NCBI GenBank assembly: GCA_947570175.1
Contig: CANOTJ010000003.1
Location: forward strand, 1 to 64,000
DNA from: an uncultured Mycoplasmatota bacterium
GTDB lineage: Bacteria; Bacillota_I; Bacilli_A; RF39; UBA660
Length of the DNA: 64,000 bases
Reading direction: 5' to 3'
Shown piece by piece: positions 19,259 through 54,282 of the stretch (positions are counted from its first letter, which is position 1; each line of letters begins with the position of its first letter). A program made the position numbers and the translations under genes. The notes beneath the pieces are model-generated. The model had not been told where the DNA came from, searched no databases, and worked only from the letters and a program-made list of their open reading frames with translations.

Positions 19259-19291
19259 CTATCTGCAAGCAAGTGGTCGAATATAACCGTA
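19259..19291 (-). pseudogene. 3' end of the bacteriocin gene split by the prophage (peptide A, C-terminal part)
   Basis: Read on the minus strand from the core at 19289-19296, codons Y-GYIRPLACR and a TAG stop (19259-19261) follow. The stop overlaps the RBS (TAGGAG) of peptide B. This short tail is in the same frame as the truncated peptide gene at 54151-54282. Joined at the core, the two give a 53-codon double-glycine bacteriocin precursor ending GYIRPLACR, an Arg-Pro-Leu-x-Cys end of a kind I recall from double-glycine bacteriocins. No start remains here in the lysogen. Confidence 0.8.
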
Positions 19292-19296
19292 TAAAC
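19289..19296. repeat. attL core (GTATAAAC)
   Basis: Identical 8-mer to 54151-54158. Bacterial DNA lies to the left (bacteriocin C-terminal codons) and phage DNA to the right (integrase end). Confidence 0.8.
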
Positions 19297-19312
19297 CACA
19301 ATCATAATACTT

Positions 19313-20893
19313 TTAAATTTTCATATATAAATCAAGGGTTAAATCGTTTTCTTTTCCAATTTTAGTTTTAGTATACATTACTTTTTCAATAATAGAGTGG
19401 AGTAGATCGTTTTTTTCTTTTACACTTAATTTAAAATATTCATTTACGCACCATTCTACTTTTGGAATAAGAGTTTCTAATTTGTTCATCTTTATTTGCT
19501 CATTTTCTTGTGATATTTCGTTTATTTGCTGTTCTAGGATATAAATACTATCATTTACTATTTTCGAGCGTTCTAGGTACGTTTTTTTATCATATACACC
19601 ATCTTCTAAAAGATCTCTCAATCTATTTAGTTTGTTTTTTTCTTTTTCTAATTCTACATTTAATATTTCTAGTTGATTAATAACAGTGTTTATAATGCTA
19701 TCCTTACTATTATTATAATCTATTATTATTTTTTTGTTTTCAATAACCCATTCTTTTAATAATTCTATTAATGCAATCTCTACATATTCTAAAACATGGG
19801 ATCTGTTATCACAATTATGAGTGCATTTTACAATTGGTTTTGTGTTATATGTTTTAATGCTTCCATCAGCCAATCTATATGTATTAGTTTTTGTATCGAA
19901 TCTAGCCATAACACGACCACATACACTACAACGTAAAATACCTGCTAAAGGATTTCGAAGCTCTGTATTGTTTTTAACATATTTTGTAGAGCAAACCTTC
20001 AATTTATCTTGAACCAATTTAAAATCATCTTCGCTTATAATAGCTTCATGTTTTCCTTTTTCAATCATATAAGTTCCATCATCTTGTCTTACAATTTTGT
20101 GTAATATTTTGCCATCTTCAATTACTGTTATTGTTTTTCGTTGCTGCCATTTTACATATCCAGCATATGTTACATTATGGAGCATTTCTCGAATACCGTT
20201 TTTTTTCCATTTATAACCTCTTGGAGATTTGATTCCGCTTTTATTTAAGCTTTCTGCTATGACACATGTACCATCACCATTTAGGCACATTTTAAAAATC
20301 ATTTTTACAATTTTTGCTTGTTCATCTATAATTTTCAACGAGTAACCTTTTTGCCCTTTTAATTTATATCTTTCATATCCAAAAGGAGCAATTCCGCCTA
20401 TAAAACAGCCACTACGAACACTATCTTTTCGACCTTCCGTAAGTCTTTTTTTGATATTATTATATTCTTTTCGAGAATAAGACAATTTATCTATTAAATA
20501 TTCTTCATCAGCAGGATTGTTCAAATCATATTCTTTTTCGGGAGTTAATATAAGAGTATTAGTATACTTAAATGTTTTAATTATTTTGTCTTGATCTCCT
20601 AAATCTCCACGACATAACCTTTGAACATCTATAACCCAAACACCTTTTACATCTATACCTTCAATTCTTTTCAACAATAATTGAATTTGAGGTCTTTCGT
20701 TAATACTGTCACCACTGACAACTTCTTCATATATATTTTCTTCAAAAACTGGTTTGTTTGCACTCTCGCTAATTAGTTTCAGTCTTTCTTTATGTCTTTC
20801 TAATGTTTTGAATTCATTATTTGATTTTTCGTATTCTAAATCTTCTCTAGATTTTCTTAAATATTCTAAATATATTTCTGTAAATGTTTGCAC
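19313..20893 (-). CDS. Large serine recombinase (phage integrase)
   Basis: A 526-residue site-specific integrase with GTG start at 20893. The N-terminal resolvase domain has YLRKSRED with the catalytic serine (about 15), VVSGDSINERPQ (about 60-71) and DVQRLCRGD (about 89-97). The recombinase domain follows (GGIAPFGYER, MLHNVTYAGYVKW). A zinc ribbon is CSVCGRVM ... KCTHNCDN (about 329-370), and a long coiled coil (about 400-470) precedes the C-terminus. The stop lies 17 bp from the attL core. It catalyses attP x attB integration, and excision with a directionality factor I have not identified. Confidence 0.95.
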   Translation of the reverse strand: MQTFTEIYLEYLRKSREDLEYEKSNNEFKTLERHKERLKLISESANKPVFEENIYEEVVSGDSINERPQIQLLLKRIEGIDVKGVWVIDVQRLCRGDLGDQDKIIKTFKYTNTLILTPEKEYDLNNPADEEYLIDKLSYSRKEYNNIKKRLTEGRKDSVRSGCFIGGIAPFGYERYKLKGQKGYSLKIIDEQAKIVKMIFKMCLNGDGTCVIAESLNKSGIKSPRGYKWKKNGIREMLHNVTYAGYVKWQQRKTITVIEDGKILHKIVRQDDGTYMIEKGKHEAIISEDDFKLVQDKLKVCSTKYVKNNTELRNPLAGILRCSVCGRVMARFDTKTNTYRLADGSIKTYNTKPIVKCTHNCDNRSHVLEYVEIALIELLKEWVIENKKIIIDYNNSKDSIINTVINQLEILNVELEKEKNKLNRLRDLLEDGVYDKKTYLERSKIVNDSIYILEQQINEISQENEQIKMNKLETLIPKVEWCVNEYFKLSVKEKNDLLHSIIEKVMYTKTKIGKENDLTLDLYMKI

Positions 20894-20912
20894 AATTAAT
20901 CACTTCTTTCTA

Positions 20913-20942
20913 TTGTATATTCTTATTTATTTATGATATAAT
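20913..20942 (+). promoter_or_regulatory. Promoter of candidate small RNA
   Basis: TTGTAT (20913-20918), 18-bp spacer, TATAAT (20937-20942) on the plus strand, divergent from the integrase. An 11-bp inverted repeat ATATAATTGTA (20936-20946 with 20959-20969) overlaps the -10 and start region and could be an operator. Confidence 0.6.
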
Positions 20943-20998
20943 TGTACTGAAAAACCAATACAATTATATTCTTTGCATAAAGTTTATTTTTGTTCTAA

Positions 20999-21019
20999 AT
21001 TTAGCGGTTTAGGGTTTTT
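20999..21019. repeat. 21-bp inverted repeat, copy 1
   Basis: Begins ATTTAGCGGTTTAGGG. It is the perfect reverse complement of 23461-23481, 2.4 kb away. Confidence 0.9.
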
Positions 21020-21024
21020 CATTT

Positions 21025-21057
21025 GACTTCTACCTGGCGGGGTAGAGGTCTTTTTTT
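21025..21057 (+). terminator. Rho-independent terminator of the small RNA
   Basis: GACTTCTACC / GGTAGAGGTC stem (10 bp, one G-U), loop TGGCGG, then seven T. On the plus strand only the small RNA lies upstream. Confidence 0.85.
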
Positions 21058-21149
21058 ATGTTAATAAATATTATAATTTTATTTTCTTGAAATACTTTTA
21101 AATATTTCCAATCTTTATTTTTAAATTTTACATATTTTACTTCGTACAT
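21030..21149 (-). CDS. Small phage ORF, unknown
   Basis: A 39-residue ORF with a strong RBS (GAGGTGGTAAG before ATG). The product is basic and aromatic, beginning MYEVKYVKFKNKDWKYLK. Its 3' end overlaps the terminator hairpin of the opposite-strand small RNA. It lies between the exonuclease-BRCT gene and the integrase on the same strand. Real translation is plausible but unproven; it could be a small directionality or regulatory protein. Confidence 0.45.
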   Translation of the reverse strand: MYEVKYVKFKNKDWKYLKVFQENKIIIFINIKKDLYPAR

Positions 21150-21262
21150 CTTACCACCTCAAACAGATGGTAACATATAATTGTTTGTTTGTGTTGATAA
21201 TATGTTTAAAATGATGATTTATATGTTTAAGATGAAAATAATTATATATATTAAAATTATTT

Positions 21263-22630
21263 TTATGAAATAGGGCAGCTTGCTATTTGATCATCTTTTA
21301 ATATTTTTATTAAATCATTTTCCGAGATAATTTCAATATTAATGCCTTTTTCCTGTAATTCTTGAGCTTTAGCTATTTTTCCGCCTATTTTTCCAAACTT
21401 CCATGCTTCACTTCCAAGTTCACCAACGAATAAATAATCTAATTTAGATGATACACCTTTTTTCTCAATTCCACCTAATTTTTCAAGTTTCGATTTGATT
21501 TCGGATTTGCTTCCATTTTTAAATTCTCCAGTTAGACAAAATGTTTTATTTAATAAATTAATAGAATTTTTTGACTCCAATATAGGATTTAATATTTCTT
21601 GAAAAGAAACATTAAGTTTATTTTTTTCCTCTTCTGTTAGTATTCCATCTTCTAATACACTATTAACAATTTCACAAACTTTGTCATATGGATATACTCC
21701 AACCAAATGATTATTAATATCTAACCATGTTTTTAAATTATTTATTTCATCTATAACGATTTCTCCATCACAACTTATTCCGCTTATTATCCCTTGCAAA
21801 ACTTGCAAGTTTAATGTTGTATCATTATACATTTTTGAATGACTAAAAGCAGTAACTAAATTCATTAATTCAATTCTTTCATATTTATCAATTATATTAT
21901 CTTCTAAAATTCTGTTAAGACTATTTATAATGTTATTAAATAAAGAATATTGTTTATATATTAAATTATTGTTAATCCAATTTCTTAATAAATCGATTTC
22001 TTTATCATTAATTATATTGTCATAATTAATCCCTTGAATAATTCCATATAGTTCATTTATATTTGTAGAAAGTTTTTCGTCAATTTTTTCATTAAATTCA
22101 TTTAGATATTGATATTTATGAATAAAATCATCATTGATAAAGAAATTTTCTGTTAAATATTCAAAAAGATTATATGTAGCTTTAGTATCTTCAAAGGCAT
22201 TATGTGCTTCATAATCGTAATTTAAATATTCTGAAATTGAAGTCAAATTATATGAATCCAATTTAAGATACTTTTGAGAAATTTCCAAAGTATCTATGTA
22301 TCTAAAATTTGGTATATCTATATCATATCTATTTAATGATTTTGAAATTACGCTTAAATCATAAGTTATATTATGACCAATAATAATGTTATCGTTTAAA
22401 ATATCTTTAATATTATCCCAATATTCCTTGAATGTTGGTTTGTCTAACACCATGCTTTCAATAATTCCGTTAATTTTTGAATTTCTTATATCAAAACGGT
22501 CTTCTGGATTTATTAGTGTATATTTTTTATCAATTATTTTTCCGTTCTTAATTACTAAAACAGAAATAGAACATATTGAGTTTCCTCTAGCATTTGGATT
22601 TTCTATATCCAATATTGCATAATTTTTCAT
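21263..22630 (-). CDS. DEDDh 3'-5' exonuclease with TerB-like repeats and BRCT domain
   Basis: A 455-residue protein. The N-terminal DnaQ/RNase T-like exonuclease has DIENP (about 7-11), IIGHNITYDLSV (about 102-113) and HNAFEDTKATY (about 157-167), so all four acidic residues and the His are present. The middle (about 195-350) carries two similar helical repeats (GIIQGINYD...IINSLNRILEDN and GIISGISCD...IVNSVLEDG), resembling TerB-like units. The C-terminus is a BRCT domain (KTFCLTGEFKNGSKSEIK...LGSEAWKFGKIGGKIAKA, about 365-445), as in DNA ligase. It may process DNA ends or be a lysogeny-expressed protein, since it lies on the repressor side. Confidence 0.88.
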   Translation of the reverse strand: MKNYAILDIENPNARGNSICSISVLVIKNGKIIDKKYTLINPEDRFDIRNSKINGIIESMVLDKPTFKEYWDNIKDILNDNIIIGHNITYDLSVISKSLNRYDIDIPNFRYIDTLEISQKYLKLDSYNLTSISEYLNYDYEAHNAFEDTKATYNLFEYLTENFFINDDFIHKYQYLNEFNEKIDEKLSTNINELYGIIQGINYDNIINDKEIDLLRNWINNNLIYKQYSLFNNIINSLNRILEDNIIDKYERIELMNLVTAFSHSKMYNDTTLNLQVLQGIISGISCDGEIVIDEINNLKTWLDINNHLVGVYPYDKVCEIVNSVLEDGILTEEEKNKLNVSFQEILNPILESKNSINLLNKTFCLTGEFKNGSKSEIKSKLEKLGGIEKKGVSSKLDYLFVGELGSEAWKFGKIGGKIAKAQELQEKGINIEIISENDLIKILKDDQIASCPIS

Positions 22631-22678
22631 GTATAATATCCTCCTATAAGACCTTCTGTACTAGCAAGGATTCTTTTA

Positions 22679-23038
22679 TTAATCTTTATTTTCGTTATTT
22701 TTTATTTTTTCTTCCATTAGAAATTGATTCATTTCTAAAATGTCTTTATCTGTTATTTTACCATCTTTAGATAGAGTTACTTTCATATCTCCAAATTCTA
22801 CTTCTTTAATTTCCTCGTTTGGATGTTCGATTCTTAAATCTATAGCAAGCATATCTGGAAGAGAAATATTAAGAGCTTTTGATACATCCTCAACATTATC
22901 AATACTAGGAATAATTTCTTGTGTTTCCCATCTTGCTATAGTTGTTTGATTAACTCCAACTATATTAGCTAACTTATTTTGCGATAATCCTTTTTTTTCT
23001 CTTATAAATTTTAAATTAGTATTAAAATAATTGCTCAT
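22679..23038 (-). CDS. XRE-family phage repressor (CI-like)
   Basis: A 119-residue protein. The N-terminal HTH_3 domain (about 7-60) has GLSQNKLANIVGVNQTTIARWE, with a C-terminal acidic tail (about 70-119) that could mediate dimerisation. It is transcribed away from a Cro-like gene across a shared operator region at 23041-23169, the classic lysogeny switch. Likely binds the TGC-N6-GCA sites. No peptidase domain for RecA-type self-cleavage is visible, so induction may use another route. Confidence 0.88.
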   Translation of the reverse strand: MSNYFNTNLKFIREKKGLSQNKLANIVGVNQTTIARWETQEIIPSIDNVEDVSKALNISLPDMLAIDLRIEHPNEEIKEVEFGDMKVTLSKDGKITDKDILEMNQFLMEEKIKNNENKD

Positions 23039-23096
23039 ACTTTCTCCTTTCCAACTTTATTATATAGCATTAAAAATCAAATTTCAATAAAAATTA

Positions 23097-23137
23097 TGCT
23101 TTTTTGCAGAAAAAGTATTGACATCTGCGAATAAGCA
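23097..23137. promoter_or_regulatory. Switch operators O1 and O2 (TGC-N6-GCA)
   Basis: O1 at 23097-23108 (TGCTTTTTTGCA) and O2 at 23126-23137 (TGCGAATAAGCA). Together they form a near-perfect 15-bp inverted repeat. O2 lies entirely between the -35 and -10 of the Cro-side promoter, so occupancy would block it. Confidence 0.75.
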
Positions 23138-23146
23138 TGATAACAT
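23118..23146 (+). promoter_or_regulatory. Early rightward promoter
   Basis: Consensus TTGACA (23118-23123), 17-bp spacer holding operator O2, TAACAT (23141-23146), then RBS AGGAGG before the Cro-like gene at 23170. Confidence 0.85.
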
Positions 23147-23169
23147 CTAAAATAGATAGGAGGTAAAAA

Positions 23170-23436
23170 ATGGAAATAAGAGCAAGAGAACTTATAGCAA
23201 ATAAGTTAAGAAGTATAAGAGCAGATCTAAAATATACAATTGAATATGTTGCAAATAAATCAAATGTAAGTAAAGATACAATATGTAGATATGAAAATAA
23301 TCAAGTATCTATGCAAATTGATATTTTAGAGAAACTTATACAATTCTATGGTTATAATTTTGTTATTTTTTTTAAAGAAATATATGCGAATAAGCAGAAA
23401 TTCAAAAAAGAAGATATAAGTAAAAATGAATTGTAA
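23170..23436 (+). CDS. Cro-like XRE-family regulator
   Basis: An 88-residue protein with an N-terminal helix-turn-helix (about 8-65: LRSIRADLKYTIEYVANKSNVSKDTICRYEN) and a short basic tail. Divergent from the repressor and first gene of the early rightward operon. A third operator-like site, TGCGAATAAGCA, lies inside its coding end at 23385-23396, which might allow roadblock or looping control. RBS AGGAGG. Confidence 0.85.
   Translation: MEIRARELIANKLRSIRADLKYTIEYVANKSNVSKDTICRYENNQVSMQIDILEKLIQFYGYNFVIFFKEIYANKQKFKKEDISKNEL
23385..23396. promoter_or_regulatory. Operator-like site O3 inside the Cro-like gene
   Basis: TGCGAATAAGCA is identical to O2 at all 12 positions, 259 bp downstream. 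Confidence 0.55.
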
Positions 23437-23460
23437 AAAGAAACAAACAATACAAAAACT

Positions 23461-23481
23461 AAAAACCCTAAACCGCTAAAT
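23461..23481. repeat. 21-bp inverted repeat, copy 2, in an mRNA leader
   Basis: Begins AAAAACCCTAAACCGC and is the perfect complement of the candidate small RNA at 20999-21019. It ends 3 bp before the AAAGGAA ribosome-binding site of the next gene. Confidence 0.9.
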
Positions 23482-23496
23482 GAAAGGAACGATAAT

Positions 23497-23709
23497 ATGT
23501 GCATAGTAAAAACGCAAAAAATAAATGGAATATTAGTAAATATTCATGATGACTATATTCCAAAAGAAAAAGAATTATATAAAAACAATTTAAAAAATGT
23601 TTATGACACTATAAACATGATATTCCAGGATAAAGAGACAAAAGATCTATTTTACACACCACAGGAATTAGATAAATTAAAACAACAAAACATATACGAA
23701 TTTCTATAG
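23497..23709 (+). CDS. Small early phage protein, unknown
   Basis: A 70-residue soluble protein (MCIVKTQKINGILVNIHDDYIP...) with no known domain. Its leader carries the 21-nt match to the candidate small RNA, so its translation may be controlled by antisense pairing. It lies between the Cro-like regulator and the origin region. Confidence 0.7.
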   Translation: MCIVKTQKINGILVNIHDDYIPKEKELYKNNLKNVYDTINMIFQDKETKDLFYTPQELDKLKQQNIYEFL

Positions 23710-23718
23710 GAGGATAAC

Positions 23719-23868
23719 ATGAAAGAAATATTTAAAAGTAAAGTAATATGGTTATTTATAATTTTTATTTTAAGTATCACTTATATGAATACTGGAATAC
23801 AAAAAAATGCCAGTGCTGACGACACTGACAAAAAAATAAATAATTATGAAATTAATTCACATCAATAA
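23719..23868 (+). CDS. Small exported or membrane peptide
   Basis: A 49-residue ORF with RBS AGGAGG 7 bp upstream. N-terminal Lys-rich segment, hydrophobic helix (about 9-25), then KNASADDTDKK, which looks like a signal-peptidase site (ASA) followed by a short acidic-basic tail. Function unknown; possibly a superinfection-exclusion peptide, by position only. Confidence 0.6.
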   Translation: MKEIFKSKVIWLFIIFILSITYMNTGIQKNASADDTDKKINNYEINSHQ

Positions 23869-23919
23869 TATAACAAATAGATGTGGAAAAGTCAAGTTTA
23901 ATATTAAAAATAAATATGT

Positions 23920-24118
23920 TTAATAGTTCAAGAATTATACTACTAATTCAATTAGTAGCTCAAACATTAAGCTATAAAACAAGTTAGTAGCTCAATTTTG
24001 ATAGTTTAGTAGCTCAATTTCAATGATTTAGTAGCTCAAGAATTGCGCTACCTATATATAGATTAAACTATACTATTAACTATATTATTAACTATAAAAA
24101 TAAAAATACTACGTATTT
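23920..24118. other. Probable phage replication origin: iterons plus AT-rich region
   Basis: Four exact copies of TTAGTAGCTCAA start at 23952, 23984, 24006 and 24028, with a degenerate copy TTAATAGTTCAA at 23920. Start spacings are 32, 32, 22 and 22 bp, close to whole helical turns. A 9-bp dyad (CTACTAATT at 23940-23948 with 23950-23958) overlaps the first exact copy. About 60 bp of nearly pure A/T with ATTAACTATA repeats follows, like a DNA-unwinding element. The next gene encodes a helix-turn-helix protein. This is the layout of iteron-type origins. Confidence 0.7.
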
Positions 24119-24148
24119 TTACAAAAAAAACAAGAAAGGATGGATTAA

Positions 24149-24529
24149 GTGGATGAGAAATTTAGTCAAATAAAAAATAAACTGATAATCTCTGATATTC
24201 ATGAAAAAGCTTTTAGAATAGCATGTTATTTAATTTCTTGTTCAAAAAATAGAATATGTTATCCATCGGAATACAAGATTGCAGAAGATCTACATTTGTC
24301 AAGAAATACAGTACATGAGTACTTAAAAGAACTTGAAAGTAAAAAAATCATAACAATAGAAAAACAATTTATTGGGAAAGGTAAGAAGGCACCTAGCAAA
24401 TATACAATTTCGAAAGAATATGTTGTTTCCAAAATGAGCAAGCAAAAACATCTTGAACAGCTTATCAGAGAATTACATAATGAACCTGAAATAAAAGAAT
24501 TGTTTGATTATGATTGGTTAAATGAATGA
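24149..24529 (+). CDS. HTH_36-type DNA-binding protein, likely replication initiator
   Basis: A 126-residue protein starting at GTG. Winged-helix core at about 15-85: HEKAFRIACYLISCSKNRICYPSEYKIAEDLHLSRNTVHEYLKELESKKII, typical of the HTH_36 domains in phage and plasmid replication initiators. It lies directly beside the iterons, as origin-binding initiators do. No helicase or helicase loader gene is recognised in the phage, so host factors would be needed. Alternative: transcription regulator of the early operon. Confidence 0.75.
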   Translation: MDEKFSQIKNKLIISDIHEKAFRIACYLISCSKNRICYPSEYKIAEDLHLSRNTVHEYLKELESKKIITIEKQFIGKGKKAPSKYTISKEYVVSKMSKQKHLEQLIRELHNEPEIKELFDYDWLNE

Positions 24530-24551
24530 GGAAGATTAGAGGACAGATAAA

Positions 24552-24755
24552 ATGCTTAATTTAAAGAGAAAATATATAGATTACGAAAAATATTGCAAAG
24601 ATATTCAGAGTAAAGATAATCAAATCAAAGAGAAAGATAATCGAATAAATGATTTAATAAAAGAGATTGAAGAACATAAACAAATCATTGAAGAATTAAA
24701 AAAATCTTATGAGGAGGTAATGTGTGAAAAAGAAAATAAAAATTATTTCAAATAA
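24552..24755 (+). CDS. Small coiled-coil phage protein
   Basis: A 67-residue charged coiled coil (KDNQIKEKDNRINDLIKEIEEHKQIIEELKK). The DNRINDL segment recurs in the product of the gene at 29482. Its 3' end overlaps the next gene by 32 bp. Function unknown. Confidence 0.6.
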   Translation: MLNLKRKYIDYEKYCKDIQSKDNQIKEKDNRINDLIKEIEEHKQIIEELKKSYEEVMCEKENKNYFK

Positions 24756-25044
24756 AGTTAATGAATTAATTAAACAGATTACTTATGAAGTTAAAGATTG
24801 TTTTATGTGGATTAAGAATCGAAAATCTACACAAGAAGAAATTATAAGAGATGAAATTCAATACACTAAAGCTATGGCGAAAATAACAGAAATGCAACGA
24901 CAATTAGAAGAAACTCAAAAGAAATTTGAAGAATATCAAAAAGAAATAGAACATCAACGAAAATTAAAAGAAACATATTTAAGGAATTGTAAGAATTTAA
25001 CAAAGAAAATTGAAGTAATAAAAGAAAGAAGGAAAATAATATGA
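24724..25044 (+). CDS. Coiled-coil phage protein
   Basis: A 106-residue protein starting at GTG (24724) with GAGGAGG upstream. A basic N-terminal region is followed by a long heptad-rich helix (about 50-100: KITEMQRQLEETQKKFEEYQKEIEHQR). No enzyme motif. Ends overlapping the SpoVG start (ATGA-type overlap), so translation is coupled. Confidence 0.6.
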   Translation: MKKKIKIISNKVNELIKQITYEVKDCFMWIKNRKSTQEEIIRDEIQYTKAMAKITEMQRQLEETQKKFEEYQKEIEHQRKLKETYLRNCKNLTKKIEVIKERRKII

Positions 25045-25286
25045 AAATAGGAAATGTTGTTATTAATAAGATTGAAAATGAAGGAAAAGTAAAAGCTTAT
25101 GTTAATTTTATAATTAACGAGGATTTTGCAGTACATGACGCAAGAATTATTGAGGGGAACAAGGGACTATTTGTAGCAATGCCAAGCAGAAAAACTATGA
25201 ATGGTTTTAAAGATGTATGCCATCCAATAACTCAAGAGTTAAGACAAGAAATCAATCAGATTATTCTTGAAGAATATAACAAATAA
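25041..25286 (+). CDS. SpoVG-family protein
   Basis: An 81-residue SpoVG domain: VVINKIENEGKVKAYVNFIINEDFAVHDARIIEGNKGLFVAMPSRK... HPITQELRQEI. It matches almost the full length of chromosomal SpoVG, a small RNA/DNA-binding regulator. Phage copies are known in Gram-positive phages. It may alter host gene expression or division; that is inferred. Confidence 0.93.
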   Translation: MKIGNVVINKIENEGKVKAYVNFIINEDFAVHDARIIEGNKGLFVAMPSRKTMNGFKDVCHPITQELRQEINQIILEEYNK

Positions 25287-25312
25287 AAATGATAATAAGT
25301 AGGAGGGATAAA

Positions 25313-25540
25313 ATGTTAAAAGAATGTTTACAAGGAATAGCAGATGCAATAACATCTGAACTATTTCCTAAACTATTTATATTATCACTTATTATGTTTT
25401 TTTTAGGATTAATTGTAGGATATTCAATTATTGATATCGATGTAAAGAAACAGTGTGATGAAATGAGCATAACAGAGGCATTTCAATATCCATATTGTCG
25501 GAATTATTTTGAAGAACAATTAAGAAAATTAAAGGACTAA
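25313..25540 (+). CDS. Small membrane protein
   Basis: A 75-residue protein starting at ATG 25313 with AGGAGGG upstream. One hydrophobic helix (about 20-42, PKLFILSLIMFFLGLIVGYSIID) and a soluble tail with two cysteines. Unknown phage function. Confidence 0.6.
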   Translation: MLKECLQGIADAITSELFPKLFILSLIMFFLGLIVGYSIIDIDVKKQCDEMSITEAFQYPYCRNYFEEQLRKLKD

Positions 25541-25541
25541 T

Positions 25542-25856: not shown

Positions 25857-25875
25857 AGTAAATAGAGGTGAAATT

Positions 25876-26172: not shown

Positions 26173-26173
26173 T

Positions 26174-26773: not shown

Positions 26774-26787
26774 AAAGGAGGAATAAA

Positions 26788-31823: not shown

Positions 31824-32687
31824 ATGACAAAAGATGAAATAAAAATCAAATTAGATGAATGGATTAATCAACAACGATTAGATGAATATTCTAAAAAGAC
31901 ATTAGTAGATTATCGCCATGGTGTAGATTTGTTTATTCAATGGATAAAAGAAGATGAATTTGCTATTAATAAAGATCTTACTTTAGATTACAAAGAATAT
32001 TTAGAAAAAGAGTTTGCACTTAATTCTAGAAATAAATATATTGTTGAATTAAATAAATTTTTAAAATATATAGGATATAAAGATTGCACCTTAAAAAAGT
32101 TTAAAACACAAAGAAAAACATCTATTGATGATCCTATATGGGATCAAGAACATAAACGAATGCTACGATGGGCAAAAAAATTAGATATGGAAGATATGTA
32201 TTGGATTATGGAATCATTTGCACTCGCAGGAATAAGAGTAGAAGAATTAAAATTCTTTACAGTAGAAAGAATAACAGAAAGTAATTTTATTAAAGTTTTC
32301 AATAAAGGAAAAGAAAGGACAATTATTTTAACGAATGAATTACGAAGAGGACTTATAGATTATTGTAAAAGAAAAAATATTACATCTGGTTATGTATTTA
32401 TTAGTCCTGTAAAACCGAATCAGATGTTAAATAATAGTACAATTTGGAGGCGATTAAAGAAAATTGCTAAAGCAGCAAAGATTAATCCCAATAAAATCCA
32501 CCCACATGCATGGCGACATTTATTTGCTAAAAAAGCTAAAGAAATCGGAATAGATCTAGATGAATTACAAGATATATTTGGTCATGCCGATATAAAAACA
32601 ACATCTATTTATACCATGACATCTAATAGAGAGAAAAAAGCAAAAATGGAAAAAATAAAATATGGAAAGGGGCAAGATTATGAATAG
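31824..32687 (+). CDS. Tyrosine recombinase (XerC/D-like)
   Basis: A 287-residue protein. The N-terminal SAM-like core-binding domain (about 1-95) precedes a catalytic domain with all key residues: Arg in AGIRVEEL (about 134), Lys in KGKERTI, His/Arg in HPHAWRHLF (about 229-237), His in FGHADIKTTSIYT and the nucleophile Tyr in the same motif. It is in mid-genome among replication genes, not at an att end, so it is not the integrase. It may resolve phage dimers or promote recombination. Confidence 0.92.
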   Translation: MTKDEIKIKLDEWINQQRLDEYSKKTLVDYRHGVDLFIQWIKEDEFAINKDLTLDYKEYLEKEFALNSRNKYIVELNKFLKYIGYKDCTLKKFKTQRKTSIDDPIWDQEHKRMLRWAKKLDMEDMYWIMESFALAGIRVEELKFFTVERITESNFIKVFNKGKERTIILTNELRRGLIDYCKRKNITSGYVFISPVKPNQMLNNSTIWRRLKKIAKAAKINPNKIHPHAWRHLFAKKAKEIGIDLDELQDIFGHADIKTTSIYTMTSNREKKAKMEKIKYGKGQDYE

Positions 32688-47330: not shown

Positions 47331-47341
47331 GAGGAAAATAT

Positions 47342-48202
47342 ATGCAAAAAAAATTAGTATGTGAATCACATTTACATGAAAAAATAATTTTTACTTATGA
47401 TTTTCCTTTTTATCTAGAAAAGGTTGAGGGACTTCATGAGGTAATAGGCACAGTTACTGGAATAAAAAGTGCCTATGCAATTGGGGAAAACTATATAGAT
47501 ACAGGTATTGAAAAAAGAAATATCGTTATAAGTGGAATCATAAAAGATGATTTTATTAATAATAGGCAAAAACTTTATCGCATATTTCCTTTAAAAACAA
47601 CTGGAACGCTTTATTATTATGAAGATGATCTAGAAAGAAAAATCAATTATAAAGTAGAAAGTATTAAGATAAATGAAAAAGGATACCCTAAAGTTTTTCA
47701 AATATCTTTAATATGCCCTACACCATATTTTACTGATATAGAAAAGACAACTTTGCAAATGGCCACTTGGTCACCTGCTTTTAAGTTTCCTCTTAAAATT
47801 CCACAATCAACTGGAATAAAGTTTGGCATCAAAAATAAAACTTCGATGGTATCTATAATGAATTCAACTAATATTGAATTTGGAATGACAATCACATTTA
47901 CTGCAAATGATGTAGTAGTGAACCCATCTTTATTTAATGTTGATACAAGGGAAGAAATGAAAATAGAAAAAACTATGCAGGCAGGCGATAAGATTTTGGT
48001 ACATACATATAGACAGAATAAAAATATTATTTATATTTCTGCTAGTTCTGAACAAGAGGAAAATATAAATAATCTAATGGTCTATGGAAGTAAGTTTTTA
48101 CAAATACATCATGGTGAAAATACATATCGTTATAATGCTGATGAAAATGTAGATAGCTTGGAAACTGTAATAGAATATTTAACAGAATATGAGGCAGTAT
48201 AA
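47342..48202 (+). CDS. Distal tail protein (Dit-like)
   Basis: A 286-residue protein starting at ATG 47342 with GGAGG upstream; the open frame starts earlier inside the tape measure gene. It has the phage-tail family pattern (ISGIIKDDFINNRQKLYRIFPL, about 62-83; FQISLICPTPYF). Forms the hub at the tail end. Overlaps the next gene at ATAATG. Confidence 0.87.
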   Translation: MQKKLVCESHLHEKIIFTYDFPFYLEKVEGLHEVIGTVTGIKSAYAIGENYIDTGIEKRNIVISGIIKDDFINNRQKLYRIFPLKTTGTLYYYEDDLERKINYKVESIKINEKGYPKVFQISLICPTPYFTDIEKTTLQMATWSPAFKFPLKIPQSTGIKFGIKNKTSMVSIMNSTNIEFGMTITFTANDVVVNPSLFNVDTREEMKIEKTMQAGDKILVHTYRQNKNIIYISASSEQEENINNLMVYGSKFLQIHHGENTYRYNADENVDSLETVIEYLTEYEAV

Positions 48203-49248
48203 TGATTCCAAAATTTGATATTTATGTGTATGATAAAAATTTAAATTTTATAGGTATTATAGATTTCTTTAGTTCTTTAAGATGGCGAAGAAAATACTAT
48301 GATTATGGTGAATTTGAATTACATATACCGATTGATGATCAAACTAAAAAGTTTCTAGCAAAAGATAATATAATTATTCGAGAAGATGCTATTGAAGCAG
48401 GAATTATTGAAAGTATTAAAATATCCGATGACAGTAAAAAGGTAGAGGCAACTGTTATTGGAAGATTTCTATCAAGCATATTAACAAGAAGAATTGTCAA
48501 AAAACGAATTAATTTTAGTGGAAAAATATTAGATGGTGAAAGAAAGTTATTATCTGAAATGACACCATTTTCTAAATTAGAAATAAGATCTACAACAATA
48601 GAATCAAGTTCTATTGTTTTTCAGTGTACTTATAAAAATGTTGGTGATTATTTACTCAAACTTTCTAAAACATCTACCATTGCTCACAGAATTGTACCAG
48701 ATCTACAACAAAAAAAGTTTATATATGAAAATTATCAAGGATTAGATCGTACAGAAACACAGTCATTAAATCCTAGATATGAGTTTAGTGAGGACAAAGG
48801 GAATATAGAAAAAGCAGATTATACTTACGATTCAAAATCAGAGAAAAATTATGCTTTAGTCGGTGGTCAAGGCGAGGGTGATGCAAGAATATTAGTGGAG
48901 GTAAACAGTGGTGATTATAGTGATCTAGATTTAAGAGAAACTTTCGTTGATGCAAAATCAGAAAGTAATAGCAATTTAACTGCAGAACAATACAAAGAAA
49001 TATTAAAAACAAAAGGTAAAGAGAATTTATCTGATTCTGTGGAATCTATGGAAGTTACCGCTTATGCAACAGATTATAAAAATGGTTGGGATTTAGGCGA
49101 TATAGTAAATACAAAAAAAGAGAGTTGGGGAAAATCTTTAAAAAAACGAATTGTAGAAATTGAAGAAACTATCGAAAATTCAAATCAAAAGATATATGCA
49201 ACTTTTGGAGATCCTTTGGCAGAAACATTCTCTGAAAAAGAAGATTAG
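48202..49248 (+). CDS. Tail-associated hub protein (Gp37/Tal-like)
   Basis: A 348-residue protein of the siphovirus Gp37-like family: WRRKYYDYGEFELHIPIDD (about 29-47), GIIESIKISDD, TVIGRFLSSILTRRIV, and GWDLGDIVNTKKESWG near the end. Follows Dit as in other Gram-positive siphoviruses. No peptidoglycan hydrolase domain is seen. Confidence 0.87.
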   Translation: MIPKFDIYVYDKNLNFIGIIDFFSSLRWRRKYYDYGEFELHIPIDDQTKKFLAKDNIIIREDAIEAGIIESIKISDDSKKVEATVIGRFLSSILTRRIVKKRINFSGKILDGERKLLSEMTPFSKLEIRSTTIESSSIVFQCTYKNVGDYLLKLSKTSTIAHRIVPDLQQKKFIYENYQGLDRTETQSLNPRYEFSEDKGNIEKADYTYDSKSEKNYALVGGQGEGDARILVEVNSGDYSDLDLRETFVDAKSESNSNLTAEQYKEILKTKGKENLSDSVESMEVTAYATDYKNGWDLGDIVNTKKESWGKSLKKRIVEIEETIENSNQKIYATFGDPLAETFSEKED

Positions 49249-49263
49249 AAAAAGGAGGAAATT

Positions 49264-50340
49264 ATGGAAAAATGTACATTTTTTAATGACGTTGATGATG
49301 ATAGAATTTATTTTGCAGAAGATTTAGCAAGACATTTAGCTGCATATTTTACGAACGGAATATTTAATAACAGTTGTCAAGTTTTAGGAGAAAATAACGA
49401 TATGTCCATTAGTATAAATATAGGATCTGCTAATATTAATGGTTATAGATATGATAATGATACTATTAAAATATTAAATATAGAAAATGCTGATGGCATA
49501 TTAAGTAGGGTAGACAATATTGTTATTCGTTTGGATTTAACAAATCGAATGATAACATCACAGGTAATTAAAGGTTCTTTTTCAGAAAATCCAGTAGCGC
49601 CTCCTTTGGTAAGGACAGCTACTGTTTTTGATTTAAGAATCGCTAAAATAAGTATTCCTGCAGGAACAACAACGATAACTCAGGATTTAATTACTGATAC
49701 GAGATTTATTACTTCTGATTGCGGTAATGTAGTAGGAGCAGTTCAACAAATAAATACAGATGATATATTTGCGCAATATCAATCAAAATTCAATGAATGG
49801 TTTTTAAAAATGAAAGATCAATTAGATACAGATGCAGCTGGTAATCTCCAAAGTCAAATTGATGATATCGAAGAAGAAATAAAGAACTTTAATGGTGGAG
49901 TTACTGGAGATACATTGCCAATAGGAAGTATTGTTGACTATGATGGCGATACTGTACCTGCAAATTGGGAAAAGGTGGAAGATGAAAATATTTATTCAAC
50001 TGCAGAACAAGAAATAGGAGAATGGTTTGGTAAAAAACTTTATAGAAAAACATTAGTTACAGAAAGAATAACAGCAGCTAAATTAATAGATGTTCCTATT
50101 GCTAATATTGATATGTTTTGGATAGATGCAAGTGGTACTTATATGGTTGTTGAAGTTGGAGGAGTAAAACAAACAACACCTATGCCTATGTACAAAGATT
50201 CTGCTCTTTGGACATCATTGAGACCAAATATTACTTCTAAAAATATTGAATTGAGTGTTGGCACAGGTGCTTATTGTCATGGTGTTTGTTATATAACAAT
50301 ACTTTATACAAAAACAACAGATGAGGTGGTGCAAAAATGA
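49264..50340 (+). CDS. Baseplate/receptor-binding protein
   Basis: A 358-residue protein. The N-terminal half (about 1-160) is a BppU-like region (YFAEDLARHLAAYFTNGIF; ADGILSRVDNIVIRLDL). A short coiled coil (about 200-215) is followed by a C-terminal tip domain (about 240-355) that is related to most of the next protein (YSTAEQE...GKKLYRKTL...FWIDASG...YITILYTKTTDE). Likely contacts the host surface. Confidence 0.8.
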   Translation: MEKCTFFNDVDDDRIYFAEDLARHLAAYFTNGIFNNSCQVLGENNDMSISINIGSANINGYRYDNDTIKILNIENADGILSRVDNIVIRLDLTNRMITSQVIKGSFSENPVAPPLVRTATVFDLRIAKISIPAGTTTITQDLITDTRFITSDCGNVVGAVQQINTDDIFAQYQSKFNEWFLKMKDQLDTDAAGNLQSQIDDIEEEIKNFNGGVTGDTLPIGSIVDYDGDTVPANWEKVEDENIYSTAEQEIGEWFGKKLYRKTLVTERITAAKLIDVPIANIDMFWIDASGTYMVVEVGGVKQTTPMPMYKDSALWTSLRPNITSKNIELSVGTGAYCHGVCYITILYTKTTDEVVQK

Positions 50341-50792
50341 GAATAAGAAAAATAGCGAACAGTATAGGGTTAGTAGGAAATATATTTAATAAAAAAAGTG
50401 ATAGTACAGAAGATAGCTATAGTTGTGATTATGTTAATAAAGCAATTCAAGACATTTACTCAACAGAAGAAATAAAAACTAATAAAGTATGGATAAACGG
50501 CAAACCAATTTATAGAAAAGTCATTGATAGAGGTAATAGAATAGCTAGTGAGTTATTTGATCATAACATTCCAAATGTTGATGACATCTGGATAAATAAT
50601 GACATGACATTTAGAGTTCATGCTACTGGTAATCATGTACCTTTAAATGCTAGTGGAGCGCAAACTTATGTATATGCGAATAAAACACAAGTTACTACTA
50701 CAAATAGTGGTGCCATTTCTGCCGAAAAAATTTATATTACTTTAGAATACACAAAAACAACAGATAAAGCAACAACAGATAAAGGAGCGTAA
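50337..50792 (+). CDS. Second tip protein, paralogue of the preceding C-terminal domain
   Basis: A 151-residue protein starting inside the end of the previous gene. From residue about 40 it reads YSTEEIKTNKVWINGKPIYRKV...IWINNDMTF...IYITLEYTKTTDK, the same spacing of motifs as residues 250-355 of the previous protein. This looks like a duplicated tip module that has diverged. Receptor-binding role is inferred. Confidence 0.72.
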   Translation: MRIRKIANSIGLVGNIFNKKSDSTEDSYSCDYVNKAIQDIYSTEEIKTNKVWINGKPIYRKVIDRGNRIASELFDHNIPNVDDIWINNDMTFRVHATGNHVPLNASGAQTYVYANKTQVTTTNSGAISAEKIYITLEYTKTTDKATTDKGA

Positions 50793-50795
50793 TGT

Positions 50796-51074
50796 ATGGA
50801 AAAAATAATAAATTCAATACCTCAAATAGCAACACTAATCACAAGTATGGGAATTGTACTAGGAGTAATAAAAAAATGGTTAATAGGGCCATTAGAGTTG
50901 TCTTGCATAAAGACAGATTTAGTTAATTTTATAAATGATGTTGAAAATGGATTTGATAAATCAGAAATACAAAAATTAAATGCTCATGAATTATATGATA
51001 GATATACACAACTCGGAGGGAATTCTTATGTTCATGAACATTGGGAGAAATTAAAGGAAGAAGGTAAGATTTAA
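50796..51074 (+). CDS. Small membrane-associated lysis-region protein
   Basis: A 92-residue protein with one hydrophobic helix (about 9-27) and a charged tail. Lies just before the holin. Possibly a holin partner (Firmicutes phages often carry two), otherwise unknown. Confidence 0.65.
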   Translation: MEKIINSIPQIATLITSMGIVLGVIKKWLIGPLELSCIKTDLVNFINDVENGFDKSEIQKLNAHELYDRYTQLGGNSYVHEHWEKLKEEGKI

Positions 51075-51075
51075 A

Positions 51076-51282
51076 ATGAATAATAAATTATATGATATTT
51101 TAAAATGGATTGCTATTATTGGTTTATCAGGATTAGGTTTTTTAGTTAATGGTCTTGGTGAGATATGGAAAATACCATTTACTAATGAAATAGTTAAATC
51201 AATTGATGTTGTTGGTACTGCTTTAGGTATTTGGCTTAGTATATCAGCAGCTAGTTATAATAAGAAAAAAGGAGGAAAATAA
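51076..51282 (+). CDS. Holin (phi LC3-type)
   Basis: A 68-residue protein with two hydrophobic helices (about 8-28 and 40-60) and a Lys-rich end (YNKKKGGK), in keeping with phi LC3-family holins. It would form membrane lesions that release the amidase. Confidence 0.85.
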   Translation: MNNKLYDILKWIAIIGLSGLGFLVNGLGEIWKIPFTNEIVKSIDVVGTALGIWLSISAASYNKKKGGK

Positions 51283-51283
51283 T

Positions 51284-51430
51284 ATGAATATTGAAGAAGT
51301 AAAATTCGATGAAGAATTATATAAGAAAAATATTGAAGAAAATGAATTTGCTAATATTTCTGGTAAAGAAGACGGAGTTGGTGAAGAATTAGATGTTGAT
51401 TCCATAGAAGTAGAAATGGAGGACGAATAA
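51284..51430 (+). CDS. Small acidic phage protein
   Basis: A 48-residue very acidic ORF with GGAGG upstream, between holin and amidase. No membrane segment. Unknown. Confidence 0.55.
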   Translation: MNIEEVKFDEELYKKNIEENEFANISGKEDGVGEELDVDSIEVEMEDE

Positions 51431-51432
51431 TT

Positions 51433-52275
51433 ATGCAAATAACTAAATTAATTTGTCCTACAAGTAAATATGCTATTAAGTGTCCTTTTCTAATGACACC
51501 AGAAGGTATAACAGTACATAATACAGCAAATGATGCTAGTGCTATGGCTGAAGCATCATATATGTTAGGAAATAATAATCAAGTATCTGTTCATTCATTT
51601 GTTGATGATACAAGAGTTGTTGAAGCTATTGAACAATATAGGAATGCTTGGGCTAATGGTGATGGTGTAAATGGTTTTGGTAATAGAAAAACTATATCTG
51701 TAGAAATTTGTTATTCTAAATCAGGAGGAGAAAGATTTGATAAGGCTGAAAATTTGGCAGCGGAATATATTGCAAGTTTACTTAAAAAATATGGTTGGGG
51801 AATTGACAAAGTAAAAAAACATCAAGATTGGAATGGTAAATATTGTCCTCATCGTACATTAGATTTAGGATGGCAAAGATTTTTAAATAAAGTACAATCA
51901 TATTTAGGAACAACATCTGCTCCAGTAAATAATTCAAAAGGTGGTGCAGATCAAATATTAAGAGTTGGTAGTATAGTTAGAATAGATAAAACATTAACTG
52001 TAACAGGTGTAAATGCTAAAAGTAATTTAATAGCTATTCAAGAGCTAACAGGAACACCAACATCTTCTATCCATTGGTTTGATCCTACTAACTTTGATGT
52101 AGTAGAAGGACCAAAAAAAGCTCAACAAGTTTGTACTGTAGGATGCAAAGTTAAATTAAAAGGTAATTACAAGGTATTAGGTTTAGTTAAAACCGAAGAT
52201 TGGGCATGTAAGTTAAAAATAGGAAATAGAACTAATTGGGTATGGACTAATCCATGTTATGAAGTTCAAGACTAA
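51433..52275 (+). CDS. N-acetylmuramoyl-L-alanine amidase (endolysin)
   Basis: A 280-residue endolysin. Amidase_2 domain (about 15-150): GITVHNTAND with the first zinc His (about 26), VSVHSFVDD with a second, and CPHRTLDLGW with the third. A C-terminal part (about 175-280) holds two SH3b-like wall-binding repeats (RVGSIVRIDKTLTVTG; CKVKLKGNYKVLG). No signal peptide, so it depends on the holin. Followed by a strong terminator. Confidence 0.92.
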   Translation: MQITKLICPTSKYAIKCPFLMTPEGITVHNTANDASAMAEASYMLGNNNQVSVHSFVDDTRVVEAIEQYRNAWANGDGVNGFGNRKTISVEICYSKSGGERFDKAENLAAEYIASLLKKYGWGIDKVKKHQDWNGKYCPHRTLDLGWQRFLNKVQSYLGTTSAPVNNSKGGADQILRVGSIVRIDKTLTVTGVNAKSNLIAIQELTGTPTSSIHWFDPTNFDVVEGPKKAQQVCTVGCKVKLKGNYKVLGLVKTEDWACKLKIGNRTNWVWTNPCYEVQD

Positions 52276-52278
52276 TAA

Positions 52279-52308
52279 AGCTAGGATTGAATTCCTAGCT
52301 CTTTTTTT
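52279..52308 (+). terminator. Late operon terminator
   Basis: AGCTAGGA / TCCTAGCT stem with loop TTGAAT, then CTTTTTTTG, directly after the endolysin. Confidence 0.88.
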
Positions 52309-52389
52309 GTTGCTTTTTGTCTATTTTTATCATATAATTTTGTTTGGGACAAGCAGTATTAGTCTTTAATGTAGAAAGAGGGTGATACT

Positions 52390-52785
52390 GTGAATGGTTT
52401 GAAAATTAGACCAGGAGGAATCTATTTAGTTAATTTAGGAAGAACTAAAAGTCCTGAACTAAATTCGCCTCATTATTGTGTAATTCTAAAAACACATGAC
52501 AGAGATTTATTTCTTGCTCTGCCAACAACGAGTAAATCAAAAGAAGACGAATTCAAATTTATTATACCTGAAGATAATTCAACGTGCTTGTTTAAACATA
52601 TGAAAACTATAGCAAGAAGTAGAATTATAAAACCATTAATTGATTATGATGGAAATCAAGTAATTCTATCGCCAGATAATCTTGCTGATTTGATAAGAGA
52701 TTATAAAGATTATATAGAATTTTTATGCAATAAAGCTATACAAGGAAATATCGATTATACAAACAGTTTACAAGTATTAAATTAG
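52390..52785 (+). CDS. PemK/MazF-like protein
   Basis: A 131-residue protein starting at GTG 52390. The start RPGGIYLVNLGRTKS...PHYCVILKT is the MazF/PemK beta-barrel pattern (G-D/G-I-x-x-V, then P-x-x-V), with FLALPTTSKSK and SRIIKPL fitting later strands. MazF-type proteins cleave mRNA. No antitoxin gene is adjacent; the structured RNA just downstream is a conceivable partner but that is speculation. Confidence 0.68.
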   Translation: MNGLKIRPGGIYLVNLGRTKSPELNSPHYCVILKTHDRDLFLALPTTSKSKEDEFKFIIPEDNSTCLFKHMKTIARSRIIKPLIDYDGNQVILSPDNLADLIRDYKDYIEFLCNKAIQGNIDYTNSLQVLN

Positions 52786-52790
52786 TCGAT

Positions 52791-52819
52791 TTGCATTATT
52801 TGGAAAAATGTGGTAGTAT
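52791..52819 (+). promoter_or_regulatory. Promoter of structured RNA
   Basis: TTGCAT (52791-52796), 17-bp spacer, TAGTAT (52814-52819) at the end of the PemK-like gene. Confidence 0.68.
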
Positions 52820-52825
52820 ACAAGT

Positions 52826-52965
52826 AACTCCAAAGATTATATATCGAAGAGCTAGGTATATAATATTATATCTAGCATATTGGGGTAGTTAGTTTGTGGT
52901 GAAAATCACATATTGTCCAGGTTTTCCTGGGAAGAGAAAAAGAAAGAACGCACTTTCTTTTTTAA
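52826..52965 (+). ncRNA. Candidate structured non-coding RNA
   Basis: About 140 nt with no ORF. An outer helix ACTCCAA (about 52827-52833) with TTGGGGT (about 52883-52889) encloses GCTAG/CTAGC. Then come TGTG/CACA (about 52895-52910) and CCAGG-TTTT-CCTGG (52918-52931), ending in a terminator AAAGAAAG/CTTTCTTT plus T-run. Consensus promoter at one end and terminator at the other support a discrete RNA. It does not match any RNA class I know. Confidence 0.6.
52937..52963 (+). terminator. Terminator of structured RNA
   Basis: AAAGAAAG, loop AACGCA, CTTTCTTTTTT. Confidence 0.8.
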
Positions 52966-52993
52966 TTGTTTTAAATAACAATAATTTTAAAAT

Positions 52994-53069
52994 TTGACAA
53001 TGCAATATTCAAAATCTAAAATAAAAACATCTCAAATATCACAAATTAGTGATTTGTAGATGTTCTTTT
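52994..53069 (+). promoter_or_regulatory. Strong promoter followed at once by a terminator-like hairpin
   Basis: TTGACA (52994-52999), 17-bp spacer, TAAAAT (53017-53022). Within a few bases of the expected start lies ACATCT...AGATGT enclosing ACAAAT/ATTTGT, followed by T7. It can act as an attenuator for the gene at 53105 or make a very short RNA. Confidence 0.68.
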
Positions 53070-53104
53070 TTTATGCTTTAATACTCCTAGAAAGGAGGAG
53101 TAGC

Positions 53105-53275
53105 ATGTTAAAAATATTAAATAATGATGAATTACACCAATTCATTACAAACGAAAAAATCCCATGCAAGGAATCTGTATTTAGTATTATATTAGATATA
53201 GATAATTTAAGATATATTATTAATGGTGATTTGATTATTGATTGTGATAAAAATGTTTTGAATAAGTATCTTTAA
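53105..53275 (+). CDS. Small phage protein near attR, unknown
   Basis: A 56-residue acidic protein (MLKILNNDELHQFITNEKIPC...). Its AAGGAGG RBS can pair with ACTCCT just upstream, so translation may be restricted. It converges with the LytTR regulator, overlapping its stop by 4 bp. No homology recognised. Confidence 0.6.
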   Translation: MLKILNNDELHQFITNEKIPCKESVFSIILDIDNLRYIINGDLIIDCDKNVLNKYL

Positions 53276-53994
53276 TTTTTAAGATATTCCAAAATTGATT
53301 TCAAATACCTTGCAGATACAACATCTGTTTGCATACCGTTATCAAAATAAATAATTCTATTTTTAGTATCTATTTTACTTATACGATCAGTATTAACCAA
53401 ACAACTTTTATGAGATAGAATGAATCTATTATCAACTATATCCTGGATCTGTTGCAATTGCTTACTAGATTCAAATGTCATATAATCCAAAATAAATTTT
53501 GATTTTCTATTTTCAATTTTAACATATAGTAAATTATGAGCTTCAAATCTATATAGCATTGATTTAGTTTGAATGACTAATATATTAGTCCTATATTTAT
53601 TTAATATTTGCTCTTTAAACAATATTGGAAGTTCTTTCTTATAATCGGATTTTTTAGATATAAATTTTAAAAACATAATTTTGCTTTCTAGCATATCCAT
53701 AGAATATTCAGTAAAATAATCTGTTATAAATATGATTAAACTTTTGTTATCATGTTTTCTTATGAAATTGGCTATTTGTATTCCATTTACACCTTTATCA
53801 TTATTCAATTCAATATCCAATATATATATTTTAAAATACTTATCATTTGTTATTAACCGTTTAAGCTTATTAGTATAGTCACTAAATTTCTCTATTTCAA
53901 CTTCTACCTTATACTGTATTGAAAATGAATGAATAATGTTAACAATTTTTTCACTAAATTCTTCCATGTCTTCAACTATAATAAATTTAAACAT
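53272..53994 (-). CDS. Orphan LytTR-type response regulator (AgrA/ComE-like)
   Basis: A 240-residue protein. Receiver domain (about 1-125) has acidic residues VEDMEE (about 7-12) and the phospho-acceptor Asp in YILDIEL (about 58-64). A LytTR DNA-binding domain follows (about 140-238), with RFILSHKSCLVNTDRISKID. Such regulators control bacteriocin, agr and competence operons with a HPK10-type kinase, but no kinase gene is in the window. The gene and its promoter (TTGTAT, 17 bp, TATGAT at 54057-54029) lie on the phage side of attR, so it is prophage cargo. Confidence 0.88.
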   Translation of the reverse strand: MFKFIIVEDMEEFSEKIVNIIHSFSIQYKVEVEIEKFSDYTNKLKRLITNDKYFKIYILDIELNNDKGVNGIQIANFIRKHDNKSLIIFITDYFTEYSMDMLESKIMFLKFISKKSDYKKELPILFKEQILNKYRTNILVIQTKSMLYRFEAHNLLYVKIENRKSKFILDYMTFESSKQLQQIQDIVDNRFILSHKSCLVNTDRISKIDTKNRIIYFDNGMQTDVVSARYLKSILEYLKN

Positions 53995-54028
53995 AGTAAA
54001 TACCCTTTCTTATTCACTATAAAAAAAT

Positions 54029-54057
54029 ATCATAATATTTTATCTTTTTCAATACAA
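54029..54057 (-). promoter_or_regulatory. Promoter of the LytTR regulator
   Basis: On the minus strand TTGTAT (54057-54052), 17-bp spacer, TATGAT (54034-54029), inside the prophage next to attR. Confidence 0.6.
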
Positions 54058-54150
54058 AAATGTTTGTTGGAAGAAATTGGAAATGTAAAAGGGGATTGTA
54101 ATAATAAAATAGAAGGTATATATTATATAATAATAAAGAAAAAGAATTTT

Positions 54151-54158
54151 GTATAAAC
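54151..54158. repeat. attR core (GTATAAAC)
   Basis: Identical to the attL core at 19289-19296. Phage DNA lies to the left and the bacteriocin gene to the right. Confidence 0.8.
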
Positions 54159-54282
54159 ATTGTGGTTGATATCCATCTATAATCCCTACTAAAAATGTAA
54201 TTCCTGCCCCAATTAATAAACCAATGCCAAACTTAGCAGCGCCTCCACTGATTTGTTGTAATTCTTCATCTTTTAATTTCAT
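54151..54282 (-). pseudogene. 5' part of the bacteriocin gene split by the prophage (peptide A, leader and core)
   Basis: From ATG 54282 (GGAG upstream) it encodes the leader MKLKDEELQQISGG, then AAKFGIGLLIGAGITFLVGI, then IDGYQPQCLY, up to the attR core. The natural end (GYIRPLACR, stop) lies at 19259-19288. In the lysogen the frame runs on into phage DNA to a stop at 54049, adding a 34-residue hydrophobic tail (KILFLYYYIIYTFYF...), so the product is a chimera of 78 residues that is unlikely to be a normal bacteriocin. Confidence 0.85.

What the first reader, a model, noticed from the sequence alone, without database searches (positions are those of the whole stretch)
19259..54282. Prophage integrated in frame inside a double-glycine bacteriocin gene; excision would rebuild it
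Seen: the 5' part of a double-glycine peptide gene (54282 to 54151, minus strand) runs into phage DNA at GTATAAAC. The same 8-mer at 19289-19296 is followed by GYIRPLACR and a stop in the same frame. Joining gives a 53-codon precursor whose stop touches the RBS of a second 53-codon double-glycine peptide. The rebuilt operon is C39 exporter, peptide A, peptide B, small membrane protein, terminator. Known: insertion of phage into genes with precise excision occurs (comK in Listeria, sporulation genes in Bacillus). Inference: lysogeny switches off one bacteriocin peptide, and excision restores it, tying phage state to competition.
Basis: partly seen in the sequence, partly recalled or inferred. 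Interest (0 to 1): 0.93.

Follow-up and report, generated by a model that had tools for sequence, protein, structure and literature searches.

The report
Phage splits a conserved bacteriocin-like gene
A dormant virus sits inside a gene for a small secreted, bacteriocin-like peptide in an uncultured bacterium, and the same kind of viral integrase breaks the same gene at the same codon in two other genera, so infection switches that peptide off; whether the virus ever leaves in a controlled way to switch it back on is not shown.

Summary
The prophage is real. An intact-looking 34.9-kb temperate phage with a large serine integrase interrupts peptide A of a C39-exporter / double-glycine-peptide operon. 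GTATAAAC is not the core: both copies are phage DNA, a direct repeat 22 bp apart within attP. The core is CC on the + strand (GG in the gene), at 54173-54174 and 19287-19288. Coordinates then give an empty gene of 45 codons, not 53, which matches 27 of 27 intact relatives inspected in detail (44-47 codons, always two residues between DG and RPL). A same-genus pair (lysogen G241, empty G318) shows the same breakpoint. Two other genera carry integrases 77% and 70% identical in the same codon of the same gene, but in the opposite orientation, which fits a reversed attP central dinucleotide. One of these phages, as far as its DNA was examined, shares nothing but the integrase with this one. The target is almost a core gene: 353 of 386 family genomes, 144 of 150 genera. 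Loss of peptide A in lysogens is well supported. Regulated "active lysogeny" is possible but untested, and "bacteriocin" is itself an inference.

The parts
18918..18939 (-). intrinsic terminator at the end of the operon
   Evidence: 9-bp stem followed by a T-rich tail
18940..19101 (-). small membrane protein, 53 aa, putative immunity or accessory protein
   Evidence: ORF; weak homologues at the same operon position in relatives
19089..19250 (-). peptide B, 53 aa double-glycine precursor (..LGRSIGTAIRR..)
   Evidence: a homologue follows peptide A in most of the relatives inspected
19259..19288 (-). 3' part of peptide A: GG of the core with the last base of the Gly codon, then YIRPLACR and stop
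   Evidence: matches the C-terminus of intact relatives
19287..19288 (+). attachment core dinucleotide CC (GG on the gene strand), integrase-side junction
   Evidence: boundary against intact relatives and attP symmetry
   Evidence: a like arm lies next to the integrase in G241 and G015
19313..20893 (-). large serine integrase, 526 aa
   Evidence: Pfam Recombinase 1.4e-21, Resolvase 7e-10
19289..54172 (.). prophage; 34,886 bp counting one copy of the core
   Evidence: structural, lysis, regulatory and integration genes
31824..32687 (+). second recombinase, of the phrog_1 integrase family, inside the prophage
   Evidence: phrog_1 integrase 1.7e-29
53272..53994 (-). LytTR (AgrA-like) response regulator carried by the phage at the peptide A side, co-oriented with the operon
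   Evidence: Pfam LytTR 6e-12; phrog_8810 3.6e-22
   Evidence: inverted repeat of the integrase-side arm about CC
54173..54174 (+). attachment core dinucleotide CC, far junction
   Evidence: the same breakpoint in the G241 (lysogen) / G318 (empty) pair
54173..54282 (-). 5' part of peptide A: leader, GG cleavage site and core up to the Gly codon
54049..54282 (-). hybrid ORF in the lysogen: peptide A N-terminal part fused to phage codons (77 aa)
54372..56462 (-). C39-peptidase ABC exporter, 696 aa, intact
   Evidence: homologues in 355 of 386 family genomes

Best explanation
A temperate phage carries a large serine integrase whose host attachment site lies in the strongly conserved IDGYVRPL codons near the end of the double-glycine peptide A gene. 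Crossover at a GG dinucleotide (CC on the + strand) splits the gene inside a glycine codon. In the lysogen the exporter is followed by a hybrid peptide A with a phage-encoded tail, while peptide B and the small membrane protein lie beyond 34.9 kb of phage DNA, directly downstream of the co-oriented integrase gene. Lysogeny therefore removes peptide A, and with it any function that needs the A+B pair. Precise excision by the integrase plus a phage directionality factor would restore a 45-codon gene. Shown by sequence: the insertion, the core, the intact halves, and recurrence in three genera. Inferred: loss of function, restoration on excision, and the bacteriocin role.
For: Phage gene set and serine integrase at the junction. 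27 of 27 intact relatives have exactly two residues between DG and RPL, so the halves join at GG without extra codons. Same-genus comparison: the G241 lysogen and the empty G318 gene run in step up to GATGGAT, then diverge into attP arm and VRPL codons. G015: the N-terminal half abuts the integrase on one contig, and the C-terminal half plus peptide B abuts phage DNA on another, giving the same core. attP arms are symmetric about the core in both phages (15/20, p about 2e-4; 14/20, p about 1.6e-3). All three integrases of this clade sit in this gene; none of the more distant ones examined does. Peptide A is present in 353 of 386 family genomes, and the window's own genome shows one match only.
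Against: No unlysogenised genome of the same species or genus is held. G015 and G241 are draft MAGs; the two G015 junctions fall on separate contigs and the second junction of G241 was not found. No reads were available to show excised circles. The antibacterial role rests on weak family matches (TIGR03949 just above cut-off for one relative, 23.6 bits). Near-universality in the family may point to signalling rather than competition.
Confidence: 0.88

Rival explanations
1. Active lysogeny: the phage is a regulated on/off switch that excises under particular conditions without killing the host, restoring the peptide when it is useful (like the Listeria comK prophage or Sa3int phages).
For: Both gene halves, start sites and downstream genes are undamaged in the window and in G015. 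The phage carries an AgrA-like LytTR regulator next to the operon, with no terminator found between the truncated gene and the regulator.
Against: Undamaged halves are equally expected of a recent insertion. The distribution is sparse (3 of 386 family genomes carry this integrase clade). The G015 phage is in the opposite orientation, no LytTR gene lies near its peptide-side end, and it is otherwise unrelated as far as examined. No excision data.
Confidence: 0.12
2. One reading: the core is GTATAAAC and the restored gene has 53 codons.
For: The 8-mer is present at both junctions and keeps the frame.
Against: None of 27 intact relatives has the extra eight residues. The G015 junctions lack the 8-mer. 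attP symmetry is centred on CC/GG, not on the 8-mer.
Confidence: 0.02
3. A defective, fixed prophage: the phage can no longer excise and peptide A is simply a lost gene in this lineage.
For: Only one genome of the species is held; excision cannot be tested.
Against: The key phage modules and the integrase are open reading frames, and the gene halves show no decay.
Confidence: 0.15
4. The peptides are not a bacteriocin but a core signalling or colonisation system of this family, so the phage silences communication rather than competition.
For: Peptide A in 353 of 386 genomes (239 of 252 good ones) and the exporter in 355 of 386, across about 145 genera; bacteriocin loci are usually patchy (general knowledge).
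Against: Two adjacent double-glycine peptides plus a small membrane protein is the layout of a two-peptide bacteriocin; NCBIfam class IIb match for a relative.
Confidence: 0.3

Closest known systems
Active lysogeny / phage regulatory switches (Listeria comK prophage; Sa3int phages, PMC6597384; SPbeta in spsM, PMC13228054)
   Same: A prophage splits a host gene in a way that precise excision would mend
   Different: Target is a double-glycine peptide gene; excision and regulation not shown here
Large serine phage integrases (phiC31, Bxb1, A118/LI; PMC3783163)
   Same: Resolvase, Recombinase and zinc-ribbon-like domains, quasi-palindromic attP, 2-bp core, hybrid attL/attR
   Different: Less than 60% identical to any record in the phage collection searched; attB lies in a peptide gene; natural relatives use both polarities of the core
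Prophages at cotJC-like genes (related integrases in this family; C. difficile phi027 lies beside a cotJC-homologous gene, PMC11222575)
   Same: Related integrases (34-42% identical) next to a split conserved host coding gene, in both orientations
   Different: Different target gene
Class IIb two-peptide bacteriocin operons (lactobin A/cerein 7B family, TIGR03949)
   Same: C39 exporter, two double-glycine precursors, small membrane protein
   Different: Matches only weakly; conserved in almost every genome of the family; activity unknown

Membership tests
Large serine phage integrase | Resolvase + Recombinase + zinc-ribbon domains | tested here: met
   Pfam PF00239 and PF07508 above cut-off, PF13408 just below its cut-off
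Large serine phage integrase | attP with inverted arms about a central dinucleotide, shared core in attL/attR | tested here: met
   Symmetry about CC/GG in two phages
Large serine phage integrase | Recombination activity and a directionality factor | not testable with these tools
   Needs an assay; no directionality factor identified
Active lysogeny (phage regulatory switch) | Prophage inside a host gene whose precise excision would restore it | tested here: met
   Halves match intact relatives across the core
Active lysogeny (phage regulatory switch) | Excision in living cells without lysis, tied to a condition | not testable with these tools
   No reads or expression data
Class IIb two-peptide bacteriocin | Two adjacent double-glycine precursors with a C39 exporter | tested here: met
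   seen intact in relatives; split by the phage here
Class IIb two-peptide bacteriocin | Match to a curated bacteriocin model above cut-off | tested here: inconclusive
   One relative of peptide A passes TIGR03949 (23.6 against 21.5), another misses (20.4); peptide B does not pass any bacteriocin model; the window's peptide A half is weak in Pfam PF10439
Class IIb two-peptide bacteriocin | Killing that needs both peptides, and an immunity protein | not testable with these tools
   Needs an assay

The most novel reading that the evidence does not exclude
The phage is a communication-linked switch: its AgrA-like LytTR regulator, sitting next to and co-oriented with the peptide operon, couples phage state to the host's peptide system, and excision reversibly restores a nearly universal secreted peptide pair.
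Probability: 0.08. Interest if true: 0.85.

Novelty: new member of a known kind. Interest (0 to 1): 0.5.

Why it matters
It shows one integrase clade using the best-conserved codons of a nearly universal secreted-peptide gene as its landing site, in three genera, so lysogeny predictably removes that peptide. It also gives natural cases of polarity switching: within the peptide-gene clade, and repeatedly among cotJC-targeting relatives, related integrases sit in opposite orientations in the same site. In the peptide-gene phages this goes with CC versus GG at the core, as predicted from laboratory work on Bxb1 and phiC31.

Tried and rejected
GTATAAAC as core: rejected. Search for the attP palindrome in viral contigs: six hits, none with a related integrase. 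Integrase and LytTR in viral contigs: no relatives. Same-genus empty site for the window species: none held. LytTR-type direct repeats upstream of the exporter: none found in the window, and no consistent pattern in relatives. Structured RNA near 52800-53000: no credible Rfam match. Overall kinship of the G015 phage: no window prophage protein of 90 residues or more except the integrase matched the 50 kb of G015 examined, so kinship rests on the integrase/attP module alone. Literature: a few full-text searches found no report of a prophage inside a double-glycine bacteriocin gene, which is weak evidence of absence.

Full report
Observation. The peptide A gene starts at 54282 on the minus strand and runs into foreign DNA; its last codons lie at 19288-19259; GTATAAAC is present at both ends. 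The exporter is an intact C39-peptidase ABC transporter, peptide B is a 53-residue double-glycine precursor, and a terminator follows the small membrane protein. The DNA between carries the genes of a temperate phage: head, packaging, tail, lysis, replication and repressor-type genes.

Where the crossover really is. In 27 intact relatives from the same family peptide A has 44-47 residues and ends in ..DG-xx-RPL.C.., with exactly two residues between DG and RPL in every case. Joining the two halves at GTATAAAC would leave ten. The halves fit the family pattern only if they join at the GG of the glycine codon (CC on the + strand, 54173-54174 and 19287-19288); the coordinates then give 45 codons. 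The attP site inferred from the two phage ends has arms ATTGTGGTT and AACCACAAT placed symmetrically about CC: 15 of the first 20 positions, p about 2e-4 against shuffled arms, and no such symmetry about the 8-mer.

Recurrence. Integrases 77% and 70% identical occur in two other genera, G241 and G015. In both, the integrase end abuts the N-terminal half of a peptide A gene; in G015 an exporter follows on the same contig. In G015 the C-terminal half and peptide B were found on another contig, next to phage genes. Its attP is also symmetric about the same GG (14 of 20, p about 1.6e-3). A genus-mate of G241, G318, has the uninterrupted gene; the two run in step up to GATGGAT and then part. A tblastn of window prophage proteins of 90 residues or more against the G015 DNA examined found only the integrase, so the integrase with its attP appears to be a module shared by different phages. 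This is limited to the 50 kb of G015 examined.

Orientation. In the window the integrase lies next to the C-terminal half; in G241 and G015 it lies next to the N-terminal half. The integrase-side arms are alike, but the core on the strand running into the integrase-side arm differs, CC against GG. Laboratory work cited in PMC3783163 (Ghosh 2003, Smith 2004) showed that the central dinucleotide sets orientation for Bxb1 and phiC31; this looks like the same thing in nature. More distant integrases of this family (34-42% identical) mostly abut split cotJC-like catalase genes, eight with the C-terminal half and three with the N-terminal half next to the integrase, interleaved in the integrase tree.

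Conservation of the target. A profile of peptide A finds a match in 353 of 386 family genomes, 144 of 150 genera; the exporter search finds 355 of 386. The listed peptide matches cover all or nearly all of the profile, but the weaker matches were not listed, so the true frequency of interruption is not measured; three cases are known. This conservation makes the gene a dependable landing site, and it also makes the label "bacteriocin" less certain: curated models match only weakly.

Consequences in the lysogen. Peptide A becomes a 77-residue hybrid with a phage-encoded tail in the window, and shorter altered forms in G241 and G015. The integrase is co-oriented with peptide B, and the phage LytTR gene is co-oriented with and just downstream of the truncated gene (53994-53272 after a stop at 54049), with no terminator found between. 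Read-through is therefore possible but is inference. The LytTR protein belongs to a phage protein family (phrog_8810) and is about 29-36% identical to host LytTR regulators of this bacterial family.

Verdict. Insertion into and disruption of a conserved double-glycine peptide gene is well supported, and so is restorability by a reversal at the core. A regulated switch is not shown. I did not write out the rejoined peptide gene; the codon count comes from coordinates and the evidence from naturally intact relatives.

Noticed in passing
L039, L040, L041, L066-L069, L071, L072, L074, L076: Related serine integrases in this family abut a split cotJC-like (spore-coat/manganese catalase) gene, 11 cases, in both orientations.
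   Followed up: partly
window 53272-53994: Phage-borne orphan LytTR (AgrA-like) regulator (phrog_8810), with no histidine kinase beside it.
   Followed up: partly
L086 (G000 C7), L084 (G241 C78): Host LytTR-domain genes next to cotJB/cotJC-like genes in two genera.
   Followed up: no
window 31824-32687: A second integrase-family recombinase (phrog_1) inside a prophage that also has a serine integrase.
   Followed up: no
window 52390-52785: PemK/MazF-like toxin gene in the prophage; no partner identified.
   Followed up: no
window 1096-1800 and 1888-2592: Two ORFs of the same length (234 aa) in tandem, no Pfam match; possible duplication.
   Followed up: no
family-wide: The exporter and peptide A are nearly universal in the family, unusual for a bacteriocin locus.
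   Followed up: partly
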